64,000 nucleotides of DNA from Gallionella sp. (lineage in GTDB: Bacteria > Pseudomonadota > Gammaproteobacteria > Burkholderiales > Gallionellaceae), in NCBI GenBank assembly GCA_028687335.1, contig JAQUAI010000003.1, positions 62,001 to 126,000 on the forward strand, read 5' to 3'. How positions within the stretch are numbered: position 1 is the first letter of the stretch; each line of letters starts with the position of its first letter. Both the position numbers and the translations under genes were made by a program. Below the pieces are notes generated by a model. It ran no database searches. It saw only the letters and a program-made list of their open reading frames with translations, and had not been told where the DNA came from. Shown here one piece after another: positions 20,296 through 31,132 of this stretch.

Positions 20296-21078
20296 TCAAT
20301 GCAAAACTAGGCGCGTGCCGATAATCAGCAGCATCACCGCCAAGAGGGGGCGCAATACTTTTTCTGGTACTTTGGCCGAGAGATGGCTACCGATGTAGAT
20401 GCCCGGCAAGGAGCCCAGCAGCAGGCTTCCCAGCAACACTAGATCAACCGTGCCCAACGCCATGTGCCCCAAACCCGCCACCAACGTAAGCGGCACAGCA
20501 TGGGCGATGTCGGTGCCAACCACCTTGACCGCCGTGAGGCGCGGGTAGAGAAATAACAGTGCCACCGTGCCCAGCACCCCGGCACCGATGGAAGAGATAG
20601 TTACCAGCGCACCAACAACCGTGCCCGTGACAATGGTGGCAGCTGGTAAATAACGATGATGCAATTCGTAAACCGTGCCGTCTTCGCGTTGCGCGAGTTT
20701 TTTGATCCAGTCTTTCAGCAACAAAGCCACCGCGGTCGCAAGCAGCGCCACACTCAGTACGCTGGTAACCAAGCTGCGTAAAGTTTTTTCATCCAAAGCG
20801 AGATACTTGAGCAAGGCGAGAGTAAACAGTGCCGCCGGAATACTGCCCAAGCTCAACAGCCCGACCACTTTCCATTCCACCGTGCTGTTACGGCTATGAA
20901 CCCAGCCACCCAGCGACTTGGTAATTGCCGCATACAACAGGTCGGTGCCGACAGCAGTCGCGGGCGACACACCGAAGAACAGCACCAGCAACGGTGTCAT
21001 CAGCGAGCCGCCGCCAACGCCGGTTACCCCGACGATCAGCCCGACCAAAAATCCCGACACCGTGTACAACCAATCCAT
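20296..21078 (-). CDS. TauE/SafE-family sulfur-compound permease
   Basis: A 260-residue membrane protein with about eight hydrophobic segments and the family's GVTGVGGGSLMTPLLVLFFG motif near the N-terminus (residues about 15-34), repeated in degenerate form in the second half (SSIGAGVLGTVALLFLYP). Such proteins export sulfite or carry sulfate, taurine-derived or other organosulfur anions. Here it is the first gene of the assimilation operon, 28 bp before cysI, and no CysTWA importer is visible. A start at the GTG at 21087 is possible; the ATG at 21078 is preferred. Confidence 0.85.
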   Translation of the reverse strand: MDWLYTVSGFLVGLIVGVTGVGGGSLMTPLLVLFFGVSPATAVGTDLLYAAITKSLGGWVHSRNSTVEWKVVGLLSLGSIPAALFTLALLKYLALDEKTLRSLVTSVLSVALLATAVALLLKDWIKKLAQREDGTVYELHHRYLPAATIVTGTVVGALVTISSIGAGVLGTVALLFLYPRLTAVKVVGTDIAHAVPLTLVAGLGHMALGTVDLVLLGSLLLGSLPGIYIGSHLSAKVPEKVLRPLLAVMLLIIGTRLVLH

Positions 21079-21087
21079 TTTCGTCAC

Positions 21088-21189
21088 CCGTATTCCGTTG
21101 CAATGGGGCGCATTCTAGGTTGGCACCGTTATATTACTAAATACTTTTATGTTAGTATTTTATAACTTAATAACATATACGAATTTCAT
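21088..21189. promoter_or_regulatory. Divergent promoter region of sulfate operon and cysB
   Basis: About 100 bp, very AT-rich in its right half (21130-21185: TATTACTAAATACTTTTATG, then TTATAACTTAATAAC), separate the TauE-cysIHDN operon from the LysR gene. LysR-type regulators usually bind such shared promoters, and the ATAAC/TTATAACTTAATAAC repeats are possible CysB contacts. No exact consensus match can be claimed. Confidence 0.5.
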
Positions 21190-22116
21190 ATGAATCTCCA
21201 ACAATTGCGTTACCTGAACGAAATCGTGCGCTGCAATCTGAATATCTCGGATGCCGCCAACGCGCTATACACCTCGCAACCCGGTGTCAGTAAACAGATC
21301 AAACTGCTGGAAGAAGAATTGGGTATCGATATTTTCGTGCGCAACGGAAAACGCATCGTCGCTGTCACCGAGCCAGGAAAGTCGGTCGTCGAAATCGCCC
21401 AGCGCGTATTGCGCGAAACTGAGAACTTGAAACAAGTCGGACAAGAATTCAAACGACAGGACAGCGGTAGCCTGACCATCGCCACCACGCACACGCAAGC
21501 CCGCTACGCGCTACCGCAAGTCGTAAAAGCGTTCACTTTGAGTTATCCGGGCGTAAAGCTTGGCCTGCATCAGGGCAGCCCAACGCAAATTGCCGAACAG
21601 GTATTGAGCGGCGAAGCAGACATCGGCATCGCCACCGAAAGCCTCTCCTTATATGACGAACTGGTCACCCTGCCCTGCTATGAATGGCACCACTGCATCG
21701 TTGTTCCGCTGGAGCACCCGCTGTTGCAGGAAAAGCGTTTGACACTAAAGAAGCTAGCGCAATACCCCATCATCACCTACGACTTCGCTTTCACGGGGCG
21801 CAACAAAATCAATCAGGCATTCAGCGAGGCTGGGATCGAGCCAAATATCGCGCTAACCGCCATCGATGCCGACGTGATTAAAACGTATGTGGAGCTAGGC
21901 TTGGGTGTGGGTATCGTGGCGCAGATGGCCTTCATCCCCGATCGTGACCGCCATTTACGCATGATCGACGCGGGCCATTTGTTTGAAGCCAGCACTACGC
22001 GCGTCGCCATCCGCCAAAACCAATATCTGCGCGGATTCGCTTACCACTTCATTGAATTATTCGCACCGCACCTGACGCGCGACGTGGTCGCGCAAGCGTT
22101 ACATTTGACGAAGTAA
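21190..22116 (+). CDS. cysB: LysR-family regulator, CysB/Cbl type
   Basis: A 308-residue LysR protein. The N-terminal HTH (residues about 4-60) reads MNLQQLRYLNEIVRCNLNIS, a CysB-like beginning, and the effector domain contains the TTHTQARYALP strand-loop (about 98-108) that in CysB binds sulfate and N-acetylserine. VELGLGVGIVAQMAF near residue 237 matches the usual hinge. It probably activates the divergent assimilation operon under sulfur limitation and represses its own gene. It stands at the left border of the defence island. Confidence 0.93.
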   Translation: MNLQQLRYLNEIVRCNLNISDAANALYTSQPGVSKQIKLLEEELGIDIFVRNGKRIVAVTEPGKSVVEIAQRVLRETENLKQVGQEFKRQDSGSLTIATTHTQARYALPQVVKAFTLSYPGVKLGLHQGSPTQIAEQVLSGEADIGIATESLSLYDELVTLPCYEWHHCIVVPLEHPLLQEKRLTLKKLAQYPIITYDFAFTGRNKINQAFSEAGIEPNIALTAIDADVIKTYVELGLGVGIVAQMAFIPDRDRHLRMIDAGHLFEASTTRVAIRQNQYLRGFAYHFIELFAPHLTRDVVAQALHLTK

Positions 22117-22177
22117 GGGCAGCCGCCCGCTTTTACCAAATACAATCTGGTCAGACTGACTAGTTTTGGAGAGCATC

Positions 22178-22246
22178 ATGCAAACATGGCAACTAAGCGA
22201 GGTCGTTAAACGCGCGCAAACTCCCACGCGAAAAATCAAACTATGA
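22178..22246 (+). pseudogene. Phd/YefM-type antitoxin remnant
   Basis: Only 22 codons remain: MQTWQLSEVVKRAQ followed by a divergent tail and a TGA that overlaps the next ATG. In intact family members the start (MQTWQL) is followed by about seven residues before the SEVVKRAQ part, so there appears to be an in-frame deletion as well as loss of the DNA-binding and toxin-binding remainder. A ribosome site (TTTTGGAGAGCATC) is retained. Confidence 0.7.
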
Positions 22247-22395
22247 GCTACCTGCTCAACACCAACGTCATCTCGAAATTGGTGCGCCCCAAGCCCGCCA
22301 AAGCCGTCTTGACGTGGTTCGACAACATCCCCTCCGAAGCCCTGCACATCAGCGTATTGACCTTAGGAGAAATCCGCAAAGGAATAGTAAGGTGA
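22243..22395 (+). pseudogene. VapC PIN-domain toxin remnant
   Basis: A 50-codon frame starting MSYLLNTNVISKLVRPKP and reaching ISVLTLGEIRKGI before a premature TGA; a normal VapC has about 130-140 residues. The first catalytic Asp of the usual LDTNV is replaced by Asn (LNTNV), and the second half, with the other acidic residues, is absent. It overlaps the antitoxin remnant by four bases as in a real phd-vapC operon. It is very unlikely to be active. Confidence 0.8.
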
Positions 22396-22488
22396 TAAAG
22401 TCGAATGCAGGACTCTCGTCGAGTCGTATTAGGCGAATGCCAATAAACTCCGTTGTTGTATGACAAAAGATAACCACGAGGGACGTTC

Positions 22489-25400
22489 ATGCAAAAGCGT
22501 GGCGAAGAAATACTTTATTCGGCATCGGATATTGTCAGTAATCTCGAATGTGAGCACATCACCACGCTAGACCTGCTCGATCTGGAAACGCCGCTACCAA
22601 GAACTGCGGATAGCGAACAGGCACAGTTAATCCAGAAGAAGGGCTATGCGCATGAGGCAGAGTTTCTTGAACTGCTCAAGGCTCGGCACTTGTCGGTTAT
22701 CAATATCGCTGAGACGAAAAAACCGCTGAAGCAAAAAGTTGATGCCACGCTGCAAGCTATGCGCGATGGTTGCGAAATTATTTTTCAGGCGACCTTGCGG
22801 GATGGGTGCTTGATTGGTCACGCAGATTTTCTGCGAAAAGTGTCGCGACCATCGAATCTTGGCGAGTGGAGCTATGAGGTTCTGGATACCAAGCTGGCGC
22901 GAAGCGCAAAAGCAAAATTCATTGTTCAGCTCGGGTTTTATTCTGCGCTGTTGGGTAAAGCCCAAGGGCTGGCACCGATACAGATGCATGTCATTCTTGG
23001 AGACCGCTCTGAAGTAGCCTATCGCTATGCCGATTACGCCCGATATTTGGATCTCGTGACTCATCGTTTCCTCGAACGTGTTTCTGGCGTAACTCTGGAT
23101 ACTTATCCAGTCCCTTGCGAAAAGTGCGATCAGTGCAAATGGAACGGCCTGTGTGCCGACCGGCGTCTCAGAGACGATCATCTTAGTCAGGTCGCCAATA
23201 TCAGCGGACTGCAAATCAAGAGGCTGCAAGTTGCCGGGGTGAATACATTGGAAGCTTTGGGTTCTTTGCCAGAGGCAACCCGAATCCCGAAAATGACCCC
23301 GGACACACAGGAAAGATTGCGACAACAAGCCAGATTGCAGTTGATGGCTCGCCTGAGCGGGGAGAGGCAACTGGAATTGCTGCCACAAGAAAGCGGGGCA
23401 ATTCGAGGATTCGCACGCTTGCCCCGACCGAATGCAGGCGACCTGTTTTTTGACATGGAGGGCAACCCGCTGGAGGAAGGTGGGCTTGAATATCTTTTCG
23501 GGCTCTACTTTTTCAAGGATGGGAAACCCGAGTTCAAGGCATTCTGGGGGCATAACCGAGCCGAGGAGAAATTGGCCTTCGAAGCCTTCATGGATTTTGT
23601 GACGGCATGGCTACGGCAGCATCCGTACGCCCATATCTACCATTACGCGCCTTACGAACAGACCGCACTCAAGAAGCTCATGTCTTTGCATGGCACGCGC
23701 GAGGCCGAGGTGGACAATCTGTTGCGGACGCAGAAAATGATTGATCTTTACAAAGTCGTCCGTGAGGGAATTCGCGTCTCCGAGCCAAGATACTCGATCA
23801 AGAATATCGAGCATTTTTATCTTGAGCATCGTACCGGCGATGTCACCAACGCCGGGGCAAGCATCGTCTATTACGAGCGGTGGAAGGAGACGGGGGATCC
23901 CCAATTGCTCAAGGACATTGAGGACTACAACTTCGATGATGTCCGCTCAACTTACGAATTGCAGCAATGGCTTCTGTCGCTACGCCCTGGGGAATTGCCG
24001 TGGGCAAAGGATGAGGTTGCAGAAGCGAAAGTTGCGAATCAGGAAACCGCAGAGCTCAATAAAGCAGAAGCGCGACTGATTCCTTATCGGGAGCGATTGA
24101 TAGCTCGCTTGCCCGAGGATCGCAAGGTGTGGGGACTGCCGGAACACTTGCGGGAGCTGACTTTTCAGTTGCTCGACTTCCATCGGCGCACGGAAAAACC
24201 GGCGTGGTGGGCCATGTTTGCTCGCATGGAAATGACCGAAGATGAGTTGTTGGAGGATGGCGAATGTTTGGCGGGATTGATGCCGGACACGGAAAATCCG
24301 CCTCGGCCCGATAAGCGCTCGACCGTTTACACCTTTCTTTTCCCCGAGCAGGGATCGAAGCTCAAGACCGGCGATAGCGCGACGCTGACACAGACAGCCG
24401 AAACGGTAAGCGAACTCACGGTTGACGAAGAAGCTCGGCGTGTCAGCTTCAAACGCTCGAATGGCAAAGAGCCGTTGCCGTTACGTGTTTGTCTGGGGCC
24501 GGGAAAGCCGGTGAACAGCAATGCTTTGGTCGAGGCCGTTTTTCGCTTTGGAGACAGCATCGTCGAAGGGGATGGTAAATATCCGGCGCTCGAATCCATA
24601 CTCAATCAGACGTTGCCGAAAATACGCGGCGCGGAAGCCGGGAGCCCCGTCGTGCCCGCGAACGATGAGTCGTTAACGAAAATCATCACGGCGATTGCAA
24701 ATCTCGAAAGCAGTTATTTGTTCGTTCAAGGCCCGCCGGGTGCGGGTAAAACCTATACCGGCTCCCATGTCATCGTGGCTTTGCTAAAGAAAGGTTGCCG
24801 GGTCGGTGTGTCCTCAAACAGCCACAAGGCCATCAACAATTTGTTGCATGGCATCGTCAAGGTAGCCAAGGAACAAGATTACGAATTTCGGGGTGCCAAG
24901 AAATCGACTAATGGAAAGCCGGAATCCTGCTTCGAGGGAGATTTCATCGACGATGTTTTCGACAACAAGGATATTTTTGGGGCATTTGGCGACGAATGGG
25001 AATATCAACTGGTAGCGGGTACAGCTTGGCTGTTTGCCGATAAGGGCATGGATAGTCAGCTTGATTACATATTCGTGGATGAGGCCGGGCAGGTGGCGCT
25101 GGCCAACCTGGTCGCCATGGGCACGAGCGCTAAAAACATCGTGCTGCTGGGAGACCAGATGCAATTGGGACAGCCTATTCAAGGCACACATCCGGGGCGC
25201 TCGGGGGAATCGTCGCTGGAATACCTGCTGAATGGTTTGGCGACCATTCCACCGGAACGAGGGATATTTCTCGGCACCACTTGGCGGATGCATCCGGACG
25301 TATGCCGATTCATTTCGGATGCCGTCTACGATGGTCGTCTGGAGCCGGAGCCCAATAATGCCAGGCAGATGTTGCTCCTCGACGACAATGCGCATCCATC

Positions 25401-25890
25401 CTTGATCCCCACCGGAATTCGTTATATCCCGATTGAGCACGATGCTTGTTCGCAGCGCAGTCCAGAGGAAGCCGATCTTGTGCAGGAACTCGTGCAGAGC
25501 CTGCTGACGCAGCGCTATCGCGACAAGCAGGGGCTGGAGCACCCGATGACCCTGAACGACATCCTTGTCGTAGCTCCATACAACATGCAGGTCAACTTGT
25601 TGAAGAAGGTGTTGCCGGAAGGCGCACGGGTCGGCACGGTCGATAAGTTCCAGGGCCAGGAGGCCGAAGCCGTCATCATTTCCATGGCAACGTCCAGCGG
25701 CGACTATTTGCCGCGATTCATCGAGTTTCTGTACAGCAAGAACCGCCTGAACGTGGCGATTTCGCGAGCAAAGTGTTTGGCGTTATTCATCGCCAATCCT
25801 GCGCTGATGGCTATCCGATGCACCTCCCCGGAGGAAATGGCGCTGGTGAATACCCTGTGCTGGGTGCAGGAGGTGGGACGGTGTCGTTGA
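22489..25890 (+). CDS. TM0106-type RecB nuclease / RNase H-like exonuclease / SF1 helicase fusion
   Basis: A 1133-residue protein with three enzymatic modules. (1) A Cas4/Dna2-like RecB nuclease, with HADF (Asp about 113), VLDTK (Asp133, Lys135) and QLGFY, followed by a four-Cys cluster (C210, C213, C216, C222) that may hold Fe-S. (2) An RNase_H_2/DEDD-like 3'-5' exonuclease beginning LFFDMEGNP (about 320). (3) A C-terminal SF1 Dna2/UPF1-type helicase with Walker A GPPGAGKT (about 748), VDEAGQ (about 862), then TWRMHPD, VGTVDKFQGQEA and NVAISRAK motifs. It probably processes DNA ends or invading DNA. It stands alone between the vapC remnant and the mcr genes. Confidence 0.85.
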   Translation: MQKRGEEILYSASDIVSNLECEHITTLDLLDLETPLPRTADSEQAQLIQKKGYAHEAEFLELLKARHLSVINIAETKKPLKQKVDATLQAMRDGCEIIFQATLRDGCLIGHADFLRKVSRPSNLGEWSYEVLDTKLARSAKAKFIVQLGFYSALLGKAQGLAPIQMHVILGDRSEVAYRYADYARYLDLVTHRFLERVSGVTLDTYPVPCEKCDQCKWNGLCADRRLRDDHLSQVANISGLQIKRLQVAGVNTLEALGSLPEATRIPKMTPDTQERLRQQARLQLMARLSGERQLELLPQESGAIRGFARLPRPNAGDLFFDMEGNPLEEGGLEYLFGLYFFKDGKPEFKAFWGHNRAEEKLAFEAFMDFVTAWLRQHPYAHIYHYAPYEQTALKKLMSLHGTREAEVDNLLRTQKMIDLYKVVREGIRVSEPRYSIKNIEHFYLEHRTGDVTNAGASIVYYERWKETGDPQLLKDIEDYNFDDVRSTYELQQWLLSLRPGELPWAKDEVAEAKVANQETAELNKAEARLIPYRERLIARLPEDRKVWGLPEHLRELTFQLLDFHRRTEKPAWWAMFARMEMTEDELLEDGECLAGLMPDTENPPRPDKRSTVYTFLFPEQGSKLKTGDSATLTQTAETVSELTVDEEARRVSFKRSNGKEPLPLRVCLGPGKPVNSNALVEAVFRFGDSIVEGDGKYPALESILNQTLPKIRGAEAGSPVVPANDESLTKIITAIANLESSYLFVQGPPGAGKTYTGSHVIVALLKKGCRVGVSSNSHKAINNLLHGIVKVAKEQDYEFRGAKKSTNGKPESCFEGDFIDDVFDNKDIFGAFGDEWEYQLVAGTAWLFADKGMDSQLDYIFVDEAGQVALANLVAMGTSAKNIVLLGDQMQLGQPIQGTHPGRSGESSLEYLLNGLATIPPERGIFLGTTWRMHPDVCRFISDAVYDGRLEPEPNNARQMLLLDDNAHPSLIPTGIRYIPIEHDACSQRSPEEADLVQELVQSLLTQRYRDKQGLEHPMTLNDILVVAPYNMQVNLLKKVLPEGARVGTVDKFQGQEAEAVIISMATSSGDYLPRFIEFLYSKNRLNVAISRAKCLALFIANPALMAIRCTSPEEMALVNTLCWVQEVGRCR

Positions 25891-26136
25891 TCGGGAAATC
25901 CGAACGCGGGAATTGAGATGGAGCGCGTATCTGATCGACTGGTTTGGATGGCAAACTTGAGAAAAAAGCAGGTCGATTAATTGATGCTGGAAATTACTTG
26001 TTTTGCGCGCCTGAAAATACCTTTTTTATTCATGTTGTTATGGCTGTAAATTTTTTAGACAAAGCGCTTGTCGCGCCTACGTTCGGTTAGTAACATGCAT
26101 TCAGCCTTTGATTTTCGTTGTTGTCGTTGTACTTGC

Positions 26137-26164
26137 CCCCCGGCTTCGGTCGGGGGATTTTTTT
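26137..26164 (+). terminator. Hairpin plus T-run directly before the mcr operon
   Basis: An 8-bp stem, CCCCCGGC-TTCG-GTCGGGGG, with a UUCG tetraloop is followed by ATTTTTTTA. It has every feature of an intrinsic terminator. The T-run ends six bases before AGGGGAGCAAAATG, the ribosome site and start of the next gene. It may end the helicase transcript 250 bp downstream of its stop, or act as an attenuator for the following genes if their promoter lies in 25950-26130. Confidence 0.85.
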
Positions 26165-26175
26165 AGGGGAGCAAA

Positions 26176-26502
26176 ATGAGTATTGCAAGGATTCGCCTCA
26201 CTCAAGGGAATTTGAATAACTCCCATTTTTACCTGACATCCTGCTTGGCAATGTTCCCTGCCGATTCAATCGGCGGTGGCAATGCTAGGAGCAGAGCAAG
26301 TCGATTGCTACGGATTAAGCCGCTGGATGGCGAAAGTCTGGAAACTGATATTGATGGGAAAAAGAATATTTTCAGAAAACGCGATTGGGTTACAGCAATG
26401 TTTAAACGCGCGAATGCAAAGCTTGGGGATTACGTTTTTATAAAAATGCAGAACGATGGATCTTACGAAATTGGGGTTGATAAGTCTGAGGGCAGCACAT
26501 GA
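26176..26502 (+). CDS. Small putative DNA-binding protein of the mcr operon
   Basis: A 108-residue protein. The visible pattern is RLTQGNLNNSHFYLTSCLAMFP at the start, a conserved-looking FPADSIGG turn (about 34-41), an ETDIDGKKNIFRKRDWV stretch (about 64-80) and a final DYVFIKMQNDGSYEI strand pair. This resembles small B3-like or AbrB-like proteins met next to restriction and methylation genes, but the fold is an inference. It overlaps mcrB by four bases (ATGA), so its product is made with McrB and could act as a detached target-recognition subunit or a local regulator. Confidence 0.6.
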   Translation: MSIARIRLTQGNLNNSHFYLTSCLAMFPADSIGGGNARSRASRLLRIKPLDGESLETDIDGKKNIFRKRDWVTAMFKRANAKLGDYVFIKMQNDGSYEIGVDKSEGST

Positions 26503-27851
26503 TTTTGGATCAGAAACTGACGCAAGCTGAAGCATTAGCCTTTCTTCAAAGTCGCTTCAAACCAATCGGGAATCTAGTCGAATATGTAGCTGGTTTTGAG
26601 ACAACTAATGGTCGTCAATTTGCGCTTTTACGTCGTGGCGAAATCGCCATTATTGCCGAGCCGGGTAATTGGTCTTCAATTGCCTCTGGGATAGATTTGC
26701 ATAAGCGTTACGAGCAGGGTGAATCAAGAGCTCATTTTCGGGCACAAGCGCCTCGTCTTTACGATGGGCTACCACCTATTGATAAATTGTCGATTTCCAC
26801 AGTGTCAGCACTTTCCGCATTTTGCGATGCCTATGGAGACTTAAAGGCAGCACCTGTCGAGCTACTTCCCACCAAATCCGCGCAGACACCCCAAACAATC
26901 AACAACAATGAATGTGAGCCCTGTATGAACACCATCCTTTATGGCCCTCCCGGCACTGGCAAAACTTTCAAAACAGCCCAGCTTGCCGTTGAAATCTGCG
27001 GAGGTGATGGCAACCTCCCAAGAAAAGAATTGATGGAAAGTTACAAAAAATTCCTGGAAGACGGACGGATCAGCTTCGTGACATTTCATCAGTCCTATGG
27101 ATACGAAGATTTTGTCGAAGGCTTGCGTCCAGAATTGAAAGATGGGCTGCTTTCTTACAGCGTGCGCCCCGGCATATTCCGGGCGGCATGTAAAGCTGCC
27201 GAGGAAAACAAAGCTGCCGAGAAAAGCACTGACAAGCATGTGCTCATCATCGACGAGATAAATCGCGCCAATATTTCCAAGGTCTTTGGCGAGTTAATCA
27301 CGTTACTGGAACCCGACAAGCGAGCCGGGGAAACCAACGCGATTACGGTAAAGCTCCCTTATTCAATGGACTCGTTCAGCGTCCCATCCAATCTGTACGT
27401 GATAGGCACAATGAATACGGCTGACCGCTCGATTGCCTTGCTGGACACGGCGCTGAGGCGGCGCTTCGATTTCGAGGAGTTGCAGCCTGACTATGCTGTT
27501 TTGTCGGGAATGCTCGTTGATGGCATAAAACTTGGCGAAATGCTGCGGGTGATGAACGACCGAATCGAGTATCTGTATGACCGCGACCACACAATCGGGC
27601 ATGCCTATTTTATTGATGTGAAAGACTTGGCGGACTTGGAGAAAATATTCAAACGCAAAGTTATTCCATTGCTGCAGGAATATTTCTATGAAGATTTCGC
27701 CAAGGTTTGCTCAGTGCTTAACGAAGATGAAGGATTCTTCATTAAGGAAGAACTTTCTGCGCCGAAGGGATTGGATGGGGGAGATCAGAAATTCCGCTAC
27801 ACAATGAAGAAAGAATTCCTCGCTGAGGCCTACCGAAAAATCTACGAGTAA
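26499..27851 (+). CDS. mcrB: McrB-type AAA+ GTPase of a type IV restriction system
   Basis: A 450-residue motor subunit. The N-terminal 140 residues (VEYVAGFETTNGRQFALLRR and onwards) are not the E. coli McrB DUF3578 domain and presumably read a different target. The AAA+ core has Walker A GPPGTGKTF (about 148), the family motif TFHQSYGYEDFVEGLRP, Walker B LIIDEINRANISKVFGE (about 248), GTMNTADRS (about 303, the McrB guanine-specificity NTAD), and the arginine-rich LLDTALRRRFDF. It partners McrC, whose start lies five bases after its stop, and translocates on modified DNA. Confidence 0.92.
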   Translation: MILDQKLTQAEALAFLQSRFKPIGNLVEYVAGFETTNGRQFALLRRGEIAIIAEPGNWSSIASGIDLHKRYEQGESRAHFRAQAPRLYDGLPPIDKLSISTVSALSAFCDAYGDLKAAPVELLPTKSAQTPQTINNNECEPCMNTILYGPPGTGKTFKTAQLAVEICGGDGNLPRKELMESYKKFLEDGRISFVTFHQSYGYEDFVEGLRPELKDGLLSYSVRPGIFRAACKAAEENKAAEKSTDKHVLIIDEINRANISKVFGELITLLEPDKRAGETNAITVKLPYSMDSFSVPSNLYVIGTMNTADRSIALLDTALRRRFDFEELQPDYAVLSGMLVDGIKLGEMLRVMNDRIEYLYDRDHTIGHAYFIDVKDLADLEKIFKRKVIPLLQEYFYEDFAKVCSVLNEDEGFFIKEELSAPKGLDGGDQKFRYTMKKEFLAEAYRKIYE

Positions 27852-27856
27852 CGGCC

Positions 27857-29239
27857 ATGGCGCTGATTTCCGTTAAGGAATATAAAACGCTCAAAATCAG
27901 CGATGGCTGTTTCAATTCGGAACAGCCTTCGGTGACCGAGCAGCAAGCCGAACACCTGACCAATCTCAAAGCGACTTATGGGATTGAAGTATTCAAGTAC
28001 GCCAACAAAACGACGCTGGCTGCTCAGCAGTACGTCGGCGTAATCCAGCTCGGATCGTTAACCGTAGAAGTGCTGCCCAAGATCGATGGGGATGAGCGGA
28101 GTGTCAGGCGCAATCTGGTCGCCATGCTGGCAATGGCGCTTGATCTTGGTATCAAGGAAGGAGATGTCGCCAGTGTCGCCGCACAGAATCACGGCATCCT
28201 CGAAATTCTCATCCGGCTGTTTTGCGACAAACTTTTTGTGCAGGTGCATCGTGGGTTGGTTCGACGCTACGAAGGCCGCGCAGAAAATCTTTCGGTGCTC
28301 CGTGGAAAACTTGGCGTGGTGGAGCAGGTGCGACTCAACGCAGCAAATCCTGAGCGGCTGTTCTGTCGATTCGACGAATTTCAGGAAGACAATCCGCTGA
28401 ATCAGGTATTGAGAGCGGCAGTCCGTATGCTGTTGAAAATTTCGCGAGAGATGGGGAATCAGCGAAAGCTGGCTGAACTCATGCTGGTTTTCGAGGGGGT
28501 ATCCGACTATCCGAAACAGTCGTTACCCTGGAAGCAGATCGTGTTTGATCGAATGAACGAACGCTATCGTCCTTGCTATAAGCTGGCCGAGCTATTTCTG
28601 AAAAACACCCCGCCTGACGTGACGGGCGGCATGGCTCATGGATTTTCGCTGTTTTTCAAAATGAACGAGTTGTTCGAGGAATATATCGGTCGAATGGCCG
28701 CCCGCGCTTTTCGGCCATTGGGTTATCAGGTCACGCTGCAAGGTCCGAAGCGGTGTTTGGCGATCGACGAAAAGCAAAATAATGCATTCTTTATGAAGCC
28801 GGATGTCGTCGGCAAATTGCATTCGCAGACAGCGTGGATTGTTGACACTAAATGGAAACACCTTACTAAGCAGAATTCGAAAAGTTCATGGTCATCAGCG
28901 CAGAAGGATGCCGTGTCGGAGTCTGACTTTTACCAGATGTATGCTTATGCCAACGGATACGATTGTCCCGATGTGATCTTGCTTTATCCTCACGACCAAG
29001 AGTTGGGGGCTGATGCCGGGGTGCGTGGCAGTTACCTGCTGAACGCGAGTGAGGGGGCTGAGTGCAATGTGCCCAAGCGGATCAGGGTGGCGACCATCAA
29101 CTTGTCCGACCTTAAAACAGTAAGCGATCAGTTGATGAAAATAATTCTGGCCGACCACCTGATAGCAAAGGCGACTTCGAAATTTTCCGCATCCAACCCT
29201 AACATGCAAATAGCCGAAATTAGTTACCCTGCGGCTTGA
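27857..29239 (+). CDS. mcrC: McrC-type endonuclease subunit
   Basis: A 460-residue protein. The N-terminal half (CDKLFVQVHRGLVRRYEGR, VLRGKLGV) forms the finger that stimulates McrB GTPase. The C-terminal PD-(D/E)xK nuclease has KPDVVG (about 314) and VDTKWK (Asp/Lys about 327-329). Length exceeds E. coli McrC (about 350 residues) but suits the wider family. The last 16 bases overlap the end of the convergent thioredoxin gene, so the island's right edge falls inside or beside this 3' end. Confidence 0.9.
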   Translation: MALISVKEYKTLKISDGCFNSEQPSVTEQQAEHLTNLKATYGIEVFKYANKTTLAAQQYVGVIQLGSLTVEVLPKIDGDERSVRRNLVAMLAMALDLGIKEGDVASVAAQNHGILEILIRLFCDKLFVQVHRGLVRRYEGRAENLSVLRGKLGVVEQVRLNAANPERLFCRFDEFQEDNPLNQVLRAAVRMLLKISREMGNQRKLAELMLVFEGVSDYPKQSLPWKQIVFDRMNERYRPCYKLAELFLKNTPPDVTGGMAHGFSLFFKMNELFEEYIGRMAARAFRPLGYQVTLQGPKRCLAIDEKQNNAFFMKPDVVGKLHSQTAWIVDTKWKHLTKQNSKSSWSSAQKDAVSESDFYQMYAYANGYDCPDVILLYPHDQELGADAGVRGSYLLNASEGAECNVPKRIRVATINLSDLKTVSDQLMKIILADHLIAKATSKFSASNPNMQIAEISYPAA

Positions 29240-29577
29240 TGCCGCTCGATCACGCTATCGATGAAGTTGCGTAGAAATCCTTCTGTCTGCGCGCTATGGA
29301 AACGGTCGATTTCCACGCCACGGCTATAGGCAACCACGGTGGGGAAGCCGCGCACTTTGTGTTTGCCGGCGATTTTCATATTTTCGTCCGCATCGACAAT
29401 ACCGAGGATAAATTTACCGTCATAGGCAAACACCATTTTGTGCAATAACGGAGCCAGCACTTTGCACGGCGCGCACCATTCGGCGCTAATGTCCATCAGC
29501 ACTGGTAGCTCGTGTGACTTGGCTACCACTAGCTCTTCGAAACTGTCTTCTTCCACGTTGTAAGAATAATCACTCAT
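29224..29577 (-). CDS. Thioredoxin-family protein
   Basis: A 117-residue thioredoxin fold without a signal peptide. The active site is WCAPCK (Cys about 35 and 38), with Ala where classical thioredoxin has Gly, and the cis-Pro is in GFPTVV (about 79). It is a cytoplasmic disulfide reductase or chaperone-like thioredoxin. It starts 16 bases after murJ on the same strand and is probably co-transcribed with it. Its last codons overlap mcrC on the opposite strand. Confidence 0.9.
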   Translation of the reverse strand: MSDYSYNVEEDSFEELVVAKSHELPVLMDISAEWCAPCKVLAPLLHKMVFAYDGKFILGIVDADENMKIAGKHKVRGFPTVVAYSRGVEIDRFHSAQTEGFLRNFIDSVIERHQAAG

Positions 29578-29593
29578 CGGTTTACCTCAACAC

Positions 29594-31132
29594 TCAATTC
29601 GCACCACGCTTGGCGAAGTCCCTGAGACGGAAGCCAAGCACCCATAACACCGCAAAATAAATCACCACGCCCAGCACGACCAGCCAAGCCAGATGAATAA
29701 TCCGACTCCATCCATGTGTCGTCAGCCAATGCTGCTCGCTTCCCATGCCGAACCACAGTGTCCAGCCCAGCGCTAACAGTGCCAACAGTAATTTGGCGAA
29801 GAACAACCACCAACCCGGCTCAGGTTGGTAAATGCCGTGCTTGCGCAAAAAATGAAACAGGATGGCGGAATTAAGGCAGGCACCGAGGCCGATGGATAAG
29901 GCCAGTCCGGCATGTTGAAAAGGGCCGATGAACAAAGCATTCATCGCCTGCGTGGCAATCAGGGTGACGATGCCGATTTTTACTGGCGTGCGGATGTTTT
30001 GCCGCGCATAGAAACCGGGGGCAAGAATTTTGACCAAGATCAATCCGATCAGCCCCACGCTATAACCAACCAAGGCACTGCGCGACATCAGCACATCGTG
30101 CGCGGAAAACTCACCGTGCTGAAAGAATGTCGCTAACAAGGGCACCGCGATCATGCCCAGTGCTAATGCCGCAGGCAGCGCAAGTAAAAAAGTCAGCCGC
30201 AAGCCCCAGTCCAGTAATTTGGAATATTCGCTGGTGTCATTGCTCGCATGCAACCGAGAAAGCGAAGGCAACAATATTGTGCCCAAAGCCACGCCCAACA
30301 TTCCGGTTGGAAACTCCATCAAGCGATCCGCGTAGTACAGCCATGACACGCTGCCCGCAACCAGGAAAGAAGCGAAGATAGTATTGATGATGAGGCTCAA
30401 TTGCGCGATGGAGACACCGAATATCGCTGGCCCCATCTGTTTGATGACGCGCCACATTCCCTCGTCTTTCAGATTCAGACGCAGGTTGGGCAACATACCG
30501 ATTTTTTTCAGAAAGGGCAGTTGAAAAGCCAACTGCACAATACCGGCGACGAATACCGCCCACGCCAACACCAAAATGGGGGGATTGAAATAGGGTGCAA
30601 ACCACAATGCGCCACCGATGAAACATAGATTGAGCAACACTGGGGCAAATGCCGGAACCCAAAATTTGTTGTAGGTATTCAAAATTGCCGCTGCCACGGC
30701 AACCAGTGAGATAAAGAAAATATAAGGCGAAGTGATGCGCAACAACTGCACGGTGAGATCAAATTTTTCGGCATCTTTGATAAAGCCGGGCGCACTTATA
30801 TATACAAGGATAGGCGCAGCGATAATACCGATGAGCGTAACCACAAACAGAATCAGTGCCAGCATGGTCGTGACATGATCCAGCAATAATTTAGTTTCCT
30901 CGTGTCCGCGCCGACTCTTATATTCCCCAAAGATAGGCACAAAAGCTTGCGAGAACGCCCCTTCAGCGAACAGACGACGCAGCAGATTGGGCAATTTGAA
31001 CGCCACAAAGAACGCATCGGTCGCCGCACCCGCGCCAAAAATTCGCGCGATCAAAATGTCTCGGACAAATGCGAGCACACGCGACAACAAGGTCAGGCTG
31101 CTGATGGTGGCCAGTGCTTTAAGGAGATTCAT
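29594..31132 (-). CDS. murJ: Lipid II flippase MurJ (MviN)
   Basis: A 512-residue MOP-superfamily membrane protein with about 14 hydrophobic segments and the diagnostic N-terminus [21 protein letters not shown], followed by [35 protein letters not shown]. These hold the Arg residues of the lipid II cavity. It moves peptidoglycan precursor to the periplasm. It is divergent from rpsT, a frequent neighbour of murJ in proteobacteria. The ATG at 31132 follows AAGGAGATTC on the complementary layout. Confidence 0.97.

What the first reader, a model, noticed from the sequence alone, without database searches (positions are those of the whole stretch)
22489..29239. Candidate defence island: TM0106 nuclease/helicase + small DNA-binding protein + McrB + McrC
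A four-gene block between cysB and trx encodes a 1133-residue protein with a RecB nuclease, an RNase H-like exonuclease and an SF1 helicase, then a 108-residue protein coupled to McrB, and McrC. The McrB N-terminus is not the E. coli type. A detached small subunit fused by ATGA to mcrB could be a split recognition factor, and the helicase-nuclease might degrade DNA cut by McrBC. This combination could be an extended type IV restriction system not clearly described.
Basis: partly seen in the sequence, partly recalled or inferred. Interest (0 to 1): 0.8.

Follow-up and report, generated by a model that had tools for sequence, protein, structure and literature searches.

The report
McrBC island with detached recognition protein
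A bacterium carries, as an accessory insert among ordinary genes, a DNA-cutting defence set whose probable target-recognising part is a separate small protein, next to a large helicase-nuclease that recurs beside such sets in other bacteria and may finish off the cut DNA.

Summary
Four co-directional genes (22489-29239) sit between cysB and a thioredoxin-like gene that lie under 100 bp apart in three same-genus genomes: an accessory insert.

McrB and McrC have intact motifs. The 1133-aa protein (TM0106/RecB nuclease, DEDD-type exonuclease, SF1 helicase) has McrB directly downstream on the same strand in 14 of 62 relatives with at least 3 kb downstream; McrC occurs in 13 of 340 class genomes. 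Its partners change between close relatives.

The 108-aa protein matches no Pfam, NCBIfam or PADLOC family. [quoted passage not shown] Of 12 relatives kept, 5 lie beside or inside McrBC. One, found without the helicase as bait (L158), has helicase, McrB, McrC and a separate 108-aa protein.

Best reading: McrBC with a detached B3 specificity subunit plus a modular helicase-nuclease that degrades cut DNA. The recognition half is fairly supported; helicase cooperation is plausible but unproven, and a terminator-like hairpin separates it from the small gene. Type IV or LlaJI-like type II is open; no methyltransferase was found beside it.

The parts
22489..25890 (+). TM0106/RecB-like nuclease (from residue 11) + DEDD-type RNase H-like exonuclease (319-495) + SF1 helicase (within 727-1103)
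   Evidence: in a 14-row alignment (window + 13 relatives) D113, D133, K135, Q147, Y151, D322, E324, D419, D484, the Walker A residues 748-755 except 752, and D864-E865-A866 are invariant; C21, C213, C216, C222 nearly so (a Cas4/AddB-like Fe-S cluster is inferred, motif names recalled).
26137..26156 (+). GC-rich hairpin (8 pairs, TTCG loop) with T-run, 19 bp before the small gene: terminator or attenuator candidate
   Evidence: -16.5 kcal/mol. Terminator-like sites in the region: 15 found, shuffles 8.1 +/- 2.9, so the class as a whole is only mildly enriched; this site heads the list.
26176..26502 (+). Stand-alone B3-like protein (108 aa), candidate detached recognition subunit
   Evidence: Fold search of a weak AF2 model; relatives beside or fused into McrB.
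26499..27851 (+). mcrB: AAA+ GTPase motor, Walker A 149, Walker B 249, MNTAD (NxxD) 303; N-terminal about 140 residues of unknown fold; no insertion between FHQSY and Walker B
27857..29239 (+). mcrC: PD-(D/E)xK nuclease partner, PD...DTK at residue 315
22117..29223 (.). accessory segment between cysB and the thioredoxin-like gene
   Evidence: In 3 same-genus genomes the two genes are 69-83 bp apart (matched stretches); in G403 cysB and mviN flank 1.5 kb without these genes.

Best explanation
The block is an McrBC-type restriction system in which target recognition is given in part or whole to a separate B3-fold protein. Proposed working: the 108-aa protein binds its DNA site and recruits or docks on the McrB hexamer (inferred from homology, fusions and neighbourhood); McrB hydrolyses GTP and translocates, and McrC makes the double-strand cut (established for the family, motifs intact here); the helicase-nuclease then unwinds from the ends and degrades the DNA, much as RecBCD or AddAB would (inferred from its domains and recurrent placement). 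The helicase-nuclease is a modular defence effector that pairs with McrBC in some lineages and with other systems elsewhere.
For: Intact catalytic motifs. Helicase-McrB adjacency in 14 of 62 loci, McrC in 13 of 340 class genomes. Helicase and McrC divergence correlate in 16 operons (Spearman 0.72, 0 of 5000 permutations as high; McrB-McrC 0.94). Small protein: ranks 1-24 of the fold search are B3-domain structures, best LlaJI.R1 N-terminal domain E 4.4e-3; the similarly weak model of the McrB N-terminus gives no such result. A 7-row profile finds two significant hits among the ORFs (60 aa or more) of the 80 helicase loci, both directly upstream of mcrB (L039, L049). Fused inside McrB in L128 and L155. 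In L158/L126, found with the small protein as bait, helicase (43% identical, full length) and a WYL-type gene lie divergent from McrB-McrC-108-aa protein. Sulfuricella L038 has an 81% identical helicase but another small gene and a differently built McrB: recognition parts vary most.
Against: AF2 model of the small protein is weak (pLDDT 57, 3 sequences), no fold hit below E 1e-3. No evidence of a small protein-McrB contact. 7 of 12 relatives of the small protein are not next to McrBC. The helicase lacks McrBC in most loci, including L082 (77% identical). L128 and L155 have B3-McrBC without the helicase in 17 kb. The hairpin at 26137-26156 suggests that helicase and small-mcrBC are not one simple transcript. 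The correlation may partly reflect host phylogeny. Both parts are common in defence loci, so co-location without cooperation is possible; no defence-island-matched control was run.
Confidence: 0.6

Rival explanations
1. Two independent defence modules side by side: a stand-alone helicase-nuclease defence gene, and a three-gene B3-McrBC restriction system; no functional link.
For: Helicase has diverse partners, with a WYL-type gene cluster within four listed ORFs in 33 of 91 loci (identity of the cluster by annotation and Pfam); at least 11 changes of the McrBC label on its tree, with 58 of 500 shuffles needing as few as observed; hairpin between the two parts; L128 and L155 have B3-McrBC without the helicase in the fetched 17 kb; small gene and mcrB have lower GC (0.44, 0.48) than the helicase (0.54).
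Against: Direct same-strand helicase-McrB order in 14 loci on several branches, correlated divergence, and all components together in L039, L049 and L158.
Confidence: 0.3
2. LlaJI-like type II system: B3 recognises an unmodified sequence and host DNA is protected by methylation.
For: Best fold match is LlaJI.R1-N; LlaJI restricts unmethylated GACGC and has two 5mC methyltransferases (PMC1459862, abstract); the genome has three C5 methyltransferase matches.
Against: No methyltransferase beside the block; matches of the three families searched lie on contigs C25, C19, C8 and C10, none on C11 (three families only, assembly 88.5% complete).
Confidence: 0.2
3. The small protein is a DNA-binding autoregulator of the mcrBC operon rather than the recognition subunit.
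For: Small, first gene of the mcrBC unit, B3-like fold as in plant transcription factors.
Against: The same domain is inside McrB twice (L128, L155) and after an ASCH domain beside GmrSD (L125); in L126/L158 its gene follows mcrC.
Confidence: 0.15

Closest known systems
LlaJI (R1/R2: McrB-like GTPase with N-terminal B3 domain, McrC-like nuclease)
   Same: McrB-type GTPase + PD-(D/E)xK partner + B3-like recognition domain (PMC1459862 abstract; PMC7680126 passage; PDB 6c5d best fold match)
   Different: B3-like part is a separate 108-aa protein; no adjacent methyltransferases; helicase-nuclease next to it
Classical McrBC (E. coli K-12)
   Same: McrB GTPase with NxxD motif and McrC nuclease
   Different: No DUF3578 match; detached small protein; helicase neighbour
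CoCoNuT systems (McrBC-like with SF1 helicase CnuH)
   Same: McrBC homologues with a UPF1/DNA2-type helicase gene (PMC11090510: passages; section 6)
   Different: GTPase motif is NxxD (NTAD), not NxD; helicase carries TM0106 and DEDD nucleases; none of the four genes is recognisable as TerY-P or CnuE
COG2251/TM0106 proteins with tandem AAA domains
   Same: Same domain set; predicted 3'-5' exonucleases (PMC3985635, passages)
   Different: Given there as an uncharacterised family; no McrBC link in the passages seen
Hma defence system
   Same: Relatives of the small protein lie in Hma operons (L003, L135)
   Different: No Hma family among the four window proteins

Membership tests
McrBC (type IV restriction) | McrB AAA+ GTPase with Walker A, Walker B and NxxD signature | tested here: met
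   GPPGTGKT 149, LIIDEINRA 249, GTMNTAD 303
McrBC (type IV restriction) | McrC with PD-(D/E)xK nuclease motif | tested here: met
McrBC (type IV restriction) | E. coli-type methylcytosine-binding domain (DUF3578) in McrB | tested here: not met
   no DUF3578 among families listed up to E 1; other McrBs have other domains
McrBC (type IV restriction) | cleavage depends on modified bases | not testable with these tools
   Needs biochemistry
LlaJI-type systems | B3 DNA-binding domain | tested here: inconclusive
   B3-domain structures at ranks 1-24, best E 4.4e-3, E 0.96 at rank 24; model pLDDT 57
LlaJI-type systems | B3 domain fused to the GTPase subunit | tested here: not met
   Separate ORF 26176-26502
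LlaJI-type systems | cognate 5mC methyltransferases in the operon | tested here: not met
   C5 methyltransferase matches only on other contigs
CoCoNuT | NxD GTPase motif | tested here: not met
   NTAD
CoCoNuT | coiled-coils in McrB/McrC homologues | not tested
   No coiled-coil prediction was run
Mokosh | MkoA/MkoC match over the whole protein | tested here: not met
   best-scoring stretches lie within residues 840-1114, the helicase part
Hma | HmaA, HmaB, HmaC genes | tested here: not met
   none listed for the four window proteins

The most novel reading that the evidence does not exclude
A restriction machine with a trans-acting, exchangeable specificity subunit for an McrB motor (functionally like HsdS in type I systems), coupled to a built-in RecBCD-like degradation engine: recognition, cutting and digestion in one modular locus whose recognition part is swapped between close relatives while helicase and nuclease stay.
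Probability: 0.3. Interest if true: 0.75.

Novelty: new variant of a known kind. Interest (0 to 1): 0.55.

Why it matters
McrB specificity is described as N-terminal or inserted domains of McrB. A stand-alone specificity protein would make McrBC target choice experimentally exchangeable and would show how recognition domains are traded between McrBC, GmrSD/type I and Hma loci. The recurrent helicase-nuclease makes testable whether McrBC restriction needs a dedicated degradation step.

Tried and rejected
Small protein by sequence: no hit in Pfam, PADLOC, NCBIfam, nothing credible among PDB sequences. Single-sequence search of 369 class genomes found only the own genome; profiles were needed. 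Viral contigs: no relative of the small protein or the helicase; no match in phages.

Rows dropped: three weak hits (G854, G1109, G1180), and G1472, whose frame reads like an acyl/AMP ligase (judged by eye). Of 100 same-family genomes 12 match the helicase query, 4 of them strongly, own included; the other three strong ones (G398, G445, G427) end at or near a contig edge downstream and cannot say whether mcrBC follows. 18 of the 80 loci have under 3 kb downstream; one of them, L073, ends inside an McrB-like ORF after the helicase.

McrB N-terminus: model pLDDT 62, no meaningful fold match. Rfam: no match in 21000-30500. Sigma-70 scan: 3 sites against 6.5 in shuffles, uninformative. The taxonomy look-up was a guess at the host; the organism was not identified.

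Considered and rejected: CoCoNuT membership (NxxD motif); a known PADLOC system covering the block.

Full report
What is there. Four co-directional ORFs occupy 22489-29239. Family scans give TIGR03491, RNase_H_2 and AAA_11/12 for the 1133-aa protein, AAA_5 for the 450-aa protein and PF10117 for the 460-aa protein; the 108-aa protein matches nothing. PF10117 occurs once in the held assembly, which is 88.5% complete. Catalytic residues look intact: in the window protein and 13 relatives (39-54% identical) the RecB-type D113, D133, K135, Q147, Y151, the DEDD-type D322, E324, D419, D484, and Walker A and B residues are invariant, and four cysteines (21, 213, 216, 222) nearly so (motif names recalled). 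McrB has GPPGTGKT, LIIDEINRA and MNTAD; McrC has PD...DTK.

It is an accessory insert. In 31 same-genus genomes (own included) cysB was found in 30 and the thioredoxin-like gene in 18. Of the 17 other genomes with both, three (G1192, G460, G1195) have them 69-83 bp apart in the same convergent orientation, against 7.1 kb in the window; two (G458, G416) have them about 4.5 and 18.8 kb apart in that orientation with other genes between; in the other twelve they lie on different contigs or 70 kb and more apart, so the junction is not conserved throughout the genus. In G403, whose cysB is the closest (90%), cysB and mviN flank 1.5 kb without any of the four genes.

The helicase-nuclease. A genome scan with the 14-row profile kept the best 80 of 566 relatives, a set biased towards the window protein. 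McrC was found within the fetched flanks in 17 of 80, all among the 62 with at least 3 kb downstream. In 14 of these 62 McrB lies directly downstream on the same strand (gap -336 to 912 bp), in L049 3.2 kb downstream, in L047 and L100 upstream. In the window's class McrC occurs in 13 of 340 genomes (15 matches); the 80 loci come from several classes, and a defence-island-matched control was not run, but chance proximity in a genome is far below this. On plasmids Leisingera L033 has helicase-McrB-McrC with overlapping ORFs, and coordinates in the listed rows put McrB within 2 kb of the helicase in Croceicoccus, two R. leguminosarum records, R. gallicum, Aminobacter and R. daejeonense; three Sphingobium records have both 25-32 kb apart. 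In the other eleven plasmid loci read the McrC profile finds nothing; L031 has a 240-aa ORF with an McrB-profile match (E 3e-8) directly after the helicase, L027 an ATP-binding protein with a similar weak match, L026 a DUF2357/cold-shock protein 1.6 kb upstream. Other contexts include a multiubiquitin/E2/ThiF operon, a BREX island, exonuclease/AAA pairs and WYL regulators. A WYL-type cluster lies within four listed ORFs of the helicase in 33 of 91 loci. On a 76-row tree the McrBC label (15 loci + window) needs 13 changes, at least 11 forced by well-supported branches (shuffled mean 14.8; 58 of 500 shuffles as low): scattered, not one inherited operon. Among 16 operons helicase and McrC distances correlate (0.72, 0 of 5000 permutations as high), less than McrB with McrC (0.94).

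The 108-aa protein. Plasmid search gave one Bradyrhizobium locus in 2 records (36% identity). Profile searches gave matches in 6 of 398 phylum genomes, own included, 6 of 385 genomes of another class (one seen before, three too weak and dropped) and 4 of 340 order genomes, own included (one dropped). Among the ORFs of the 80 helicase loci a 7-row profile had two significant hits, E 1e-6 and 4e-6, the next E 2.3; both directly precede mcrB (L039 Malikia, L049 Craterilacuibacter). Of 12 relatives kept: 2 directly upstream of mcrB (L039, L049), 1 directly after mcrC (L126/L158), 2 inside McrB (L128 residues about 197-302; L155 residues 291-385), 1 after an ASCH domain beside GmrSD and type I genes (L125), 2 in Hma operons (L003, L135), 1 with an HsdR-like gene about 2 kb away (L154), 1 with a C5 methyltransferase about 6 kb away (L136), and 2 with no restriction gene among the neighbours scanned, not all of which were scanned (L124, L127). 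Of the 10 found without the helicase as bait, 3 are McrBC-linked. One of these three, L158 in another class, also has a full-length helicase relative (43% identical) and a WYL-type gene on the opposite strand, diverging from a 180-aa ORF, McrB, McrC and the separate 108-aa protein. So helicase, McrBC and a separate small protein occur together in the window, L039, L049 and L158.

Fold. AF2 with three sequences gives pLDDT 57. Foldseek against PDB nevertheless returns B3-domain structures at ranks 1-24: LlaJI.R1 N-terminal domain first, then plant B3 proteins, BfiI and ARF DNA-binding domains; best E 4.4e-3, none below 1e-3, rank 24 at E 0.96 (that the ARF domains and rank 3, titled as a hypothetical protein, contain B3 is recalled). 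The similarly weak model of the McrB N-terminus (pLDDT 62) gives no such coherence. I take B3 as likely, not shown. LlaJI R1 is an McrB-like GTPase subunit and the specificity determinant of LlaJI (PMC1459862, abstract), with an N-terminal B3 domain (PMC7680126, passage), so a B3-McrB pairing has precedent; I found none for a detached form.

Recognition parts vary most. Sulfuricella L038 has helicase 81%, McrC about 70% and McrB core 67-71% identical to the window, but a different 116-aa gene in the slot, an extra N-terminal stretch of about 197 residues in McrB and a long insertion before Walker B. The window, L039 and L049 McrBs (450, 481, 536 aa) lack this insertion and have the separate gene. 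The trade is not strict: L126 has both insertion and separate gene; L065 and L113 lack the insertion and no separate gene was found there.

Against a simple operon. A hairpin with a T-run ends 19 bp before the small gene; it could terminate helicase transcripts or attenuate read-through. Gene GC falls from 0.54 (helicase) to 0.44 (small) and 0.48 (mcrB).

Prior work. Searches for TM0106 (two unrelated papers), TIGR03491 (none), COG2251/COG1112, McrBC with helicase terms and B3/LlaJI/McrB in the held open-access library showed, in the listings and the passages read, no description of this combination; most listed papers were not opened, subscription papers were not searchable, and two wanted papers were not held. 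The CoCoNuT paper reports a census of nearly 34,000 and defers several branches, among them a DISARM-like and a methyltransferase association, to a later paper, so this association may be known to its authors.

Noticed in passing
window 22178-22400: Two short overlapping ORFs upstream of the helicase read like the remains of an antitoxin (Phd-type) and a truncated PIN/VapC-type toxin (sequence); the likeness is recalled, no family search was run.
   Followed up: no
window 26137-26156: Strong TTCG-loop hairpin with T-run just before the small gene's ribosome-binding site, a possible attenuator of mcrBC.
   Followed up: partly
L146 (G416) and L145 (G458): The same cysB-thioredoxin junction holds other genes in two relatives, so it may be an insertion hotspot; their functions were not searched.
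   Followed up: partly
L003 8905-9333 and L135 8097-8444: The B3-like small protein lies inside two Hma defence operons; in L003 it sits beside a weak ASCH match (E 0.007, below cut-off). Whether this is reported for Hma was not searched.
   Followed up: partly
L028 3600-10333: The helicase-nuclease directly follows a multiubiquitin/E2/ThiF operon on a Phenylobacterium plasmid.
   Followed up: no
L092, L100, L101, L034: The helicase-nuclease recurs with a DNA-repair-exonuclease-like protein, a large protein (AAA in L034) and a very large third protein: another recurrent partner set.
   Followed up: no
L026 2104-5418: A DUF2357/cold-shock-domain protein (both matches just below cut-off) lies 1.6 kb upstream of the helicase on a Caballeronia plasmid, perhaps a CoCoNuT-like McrC.
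   Followed up: partly
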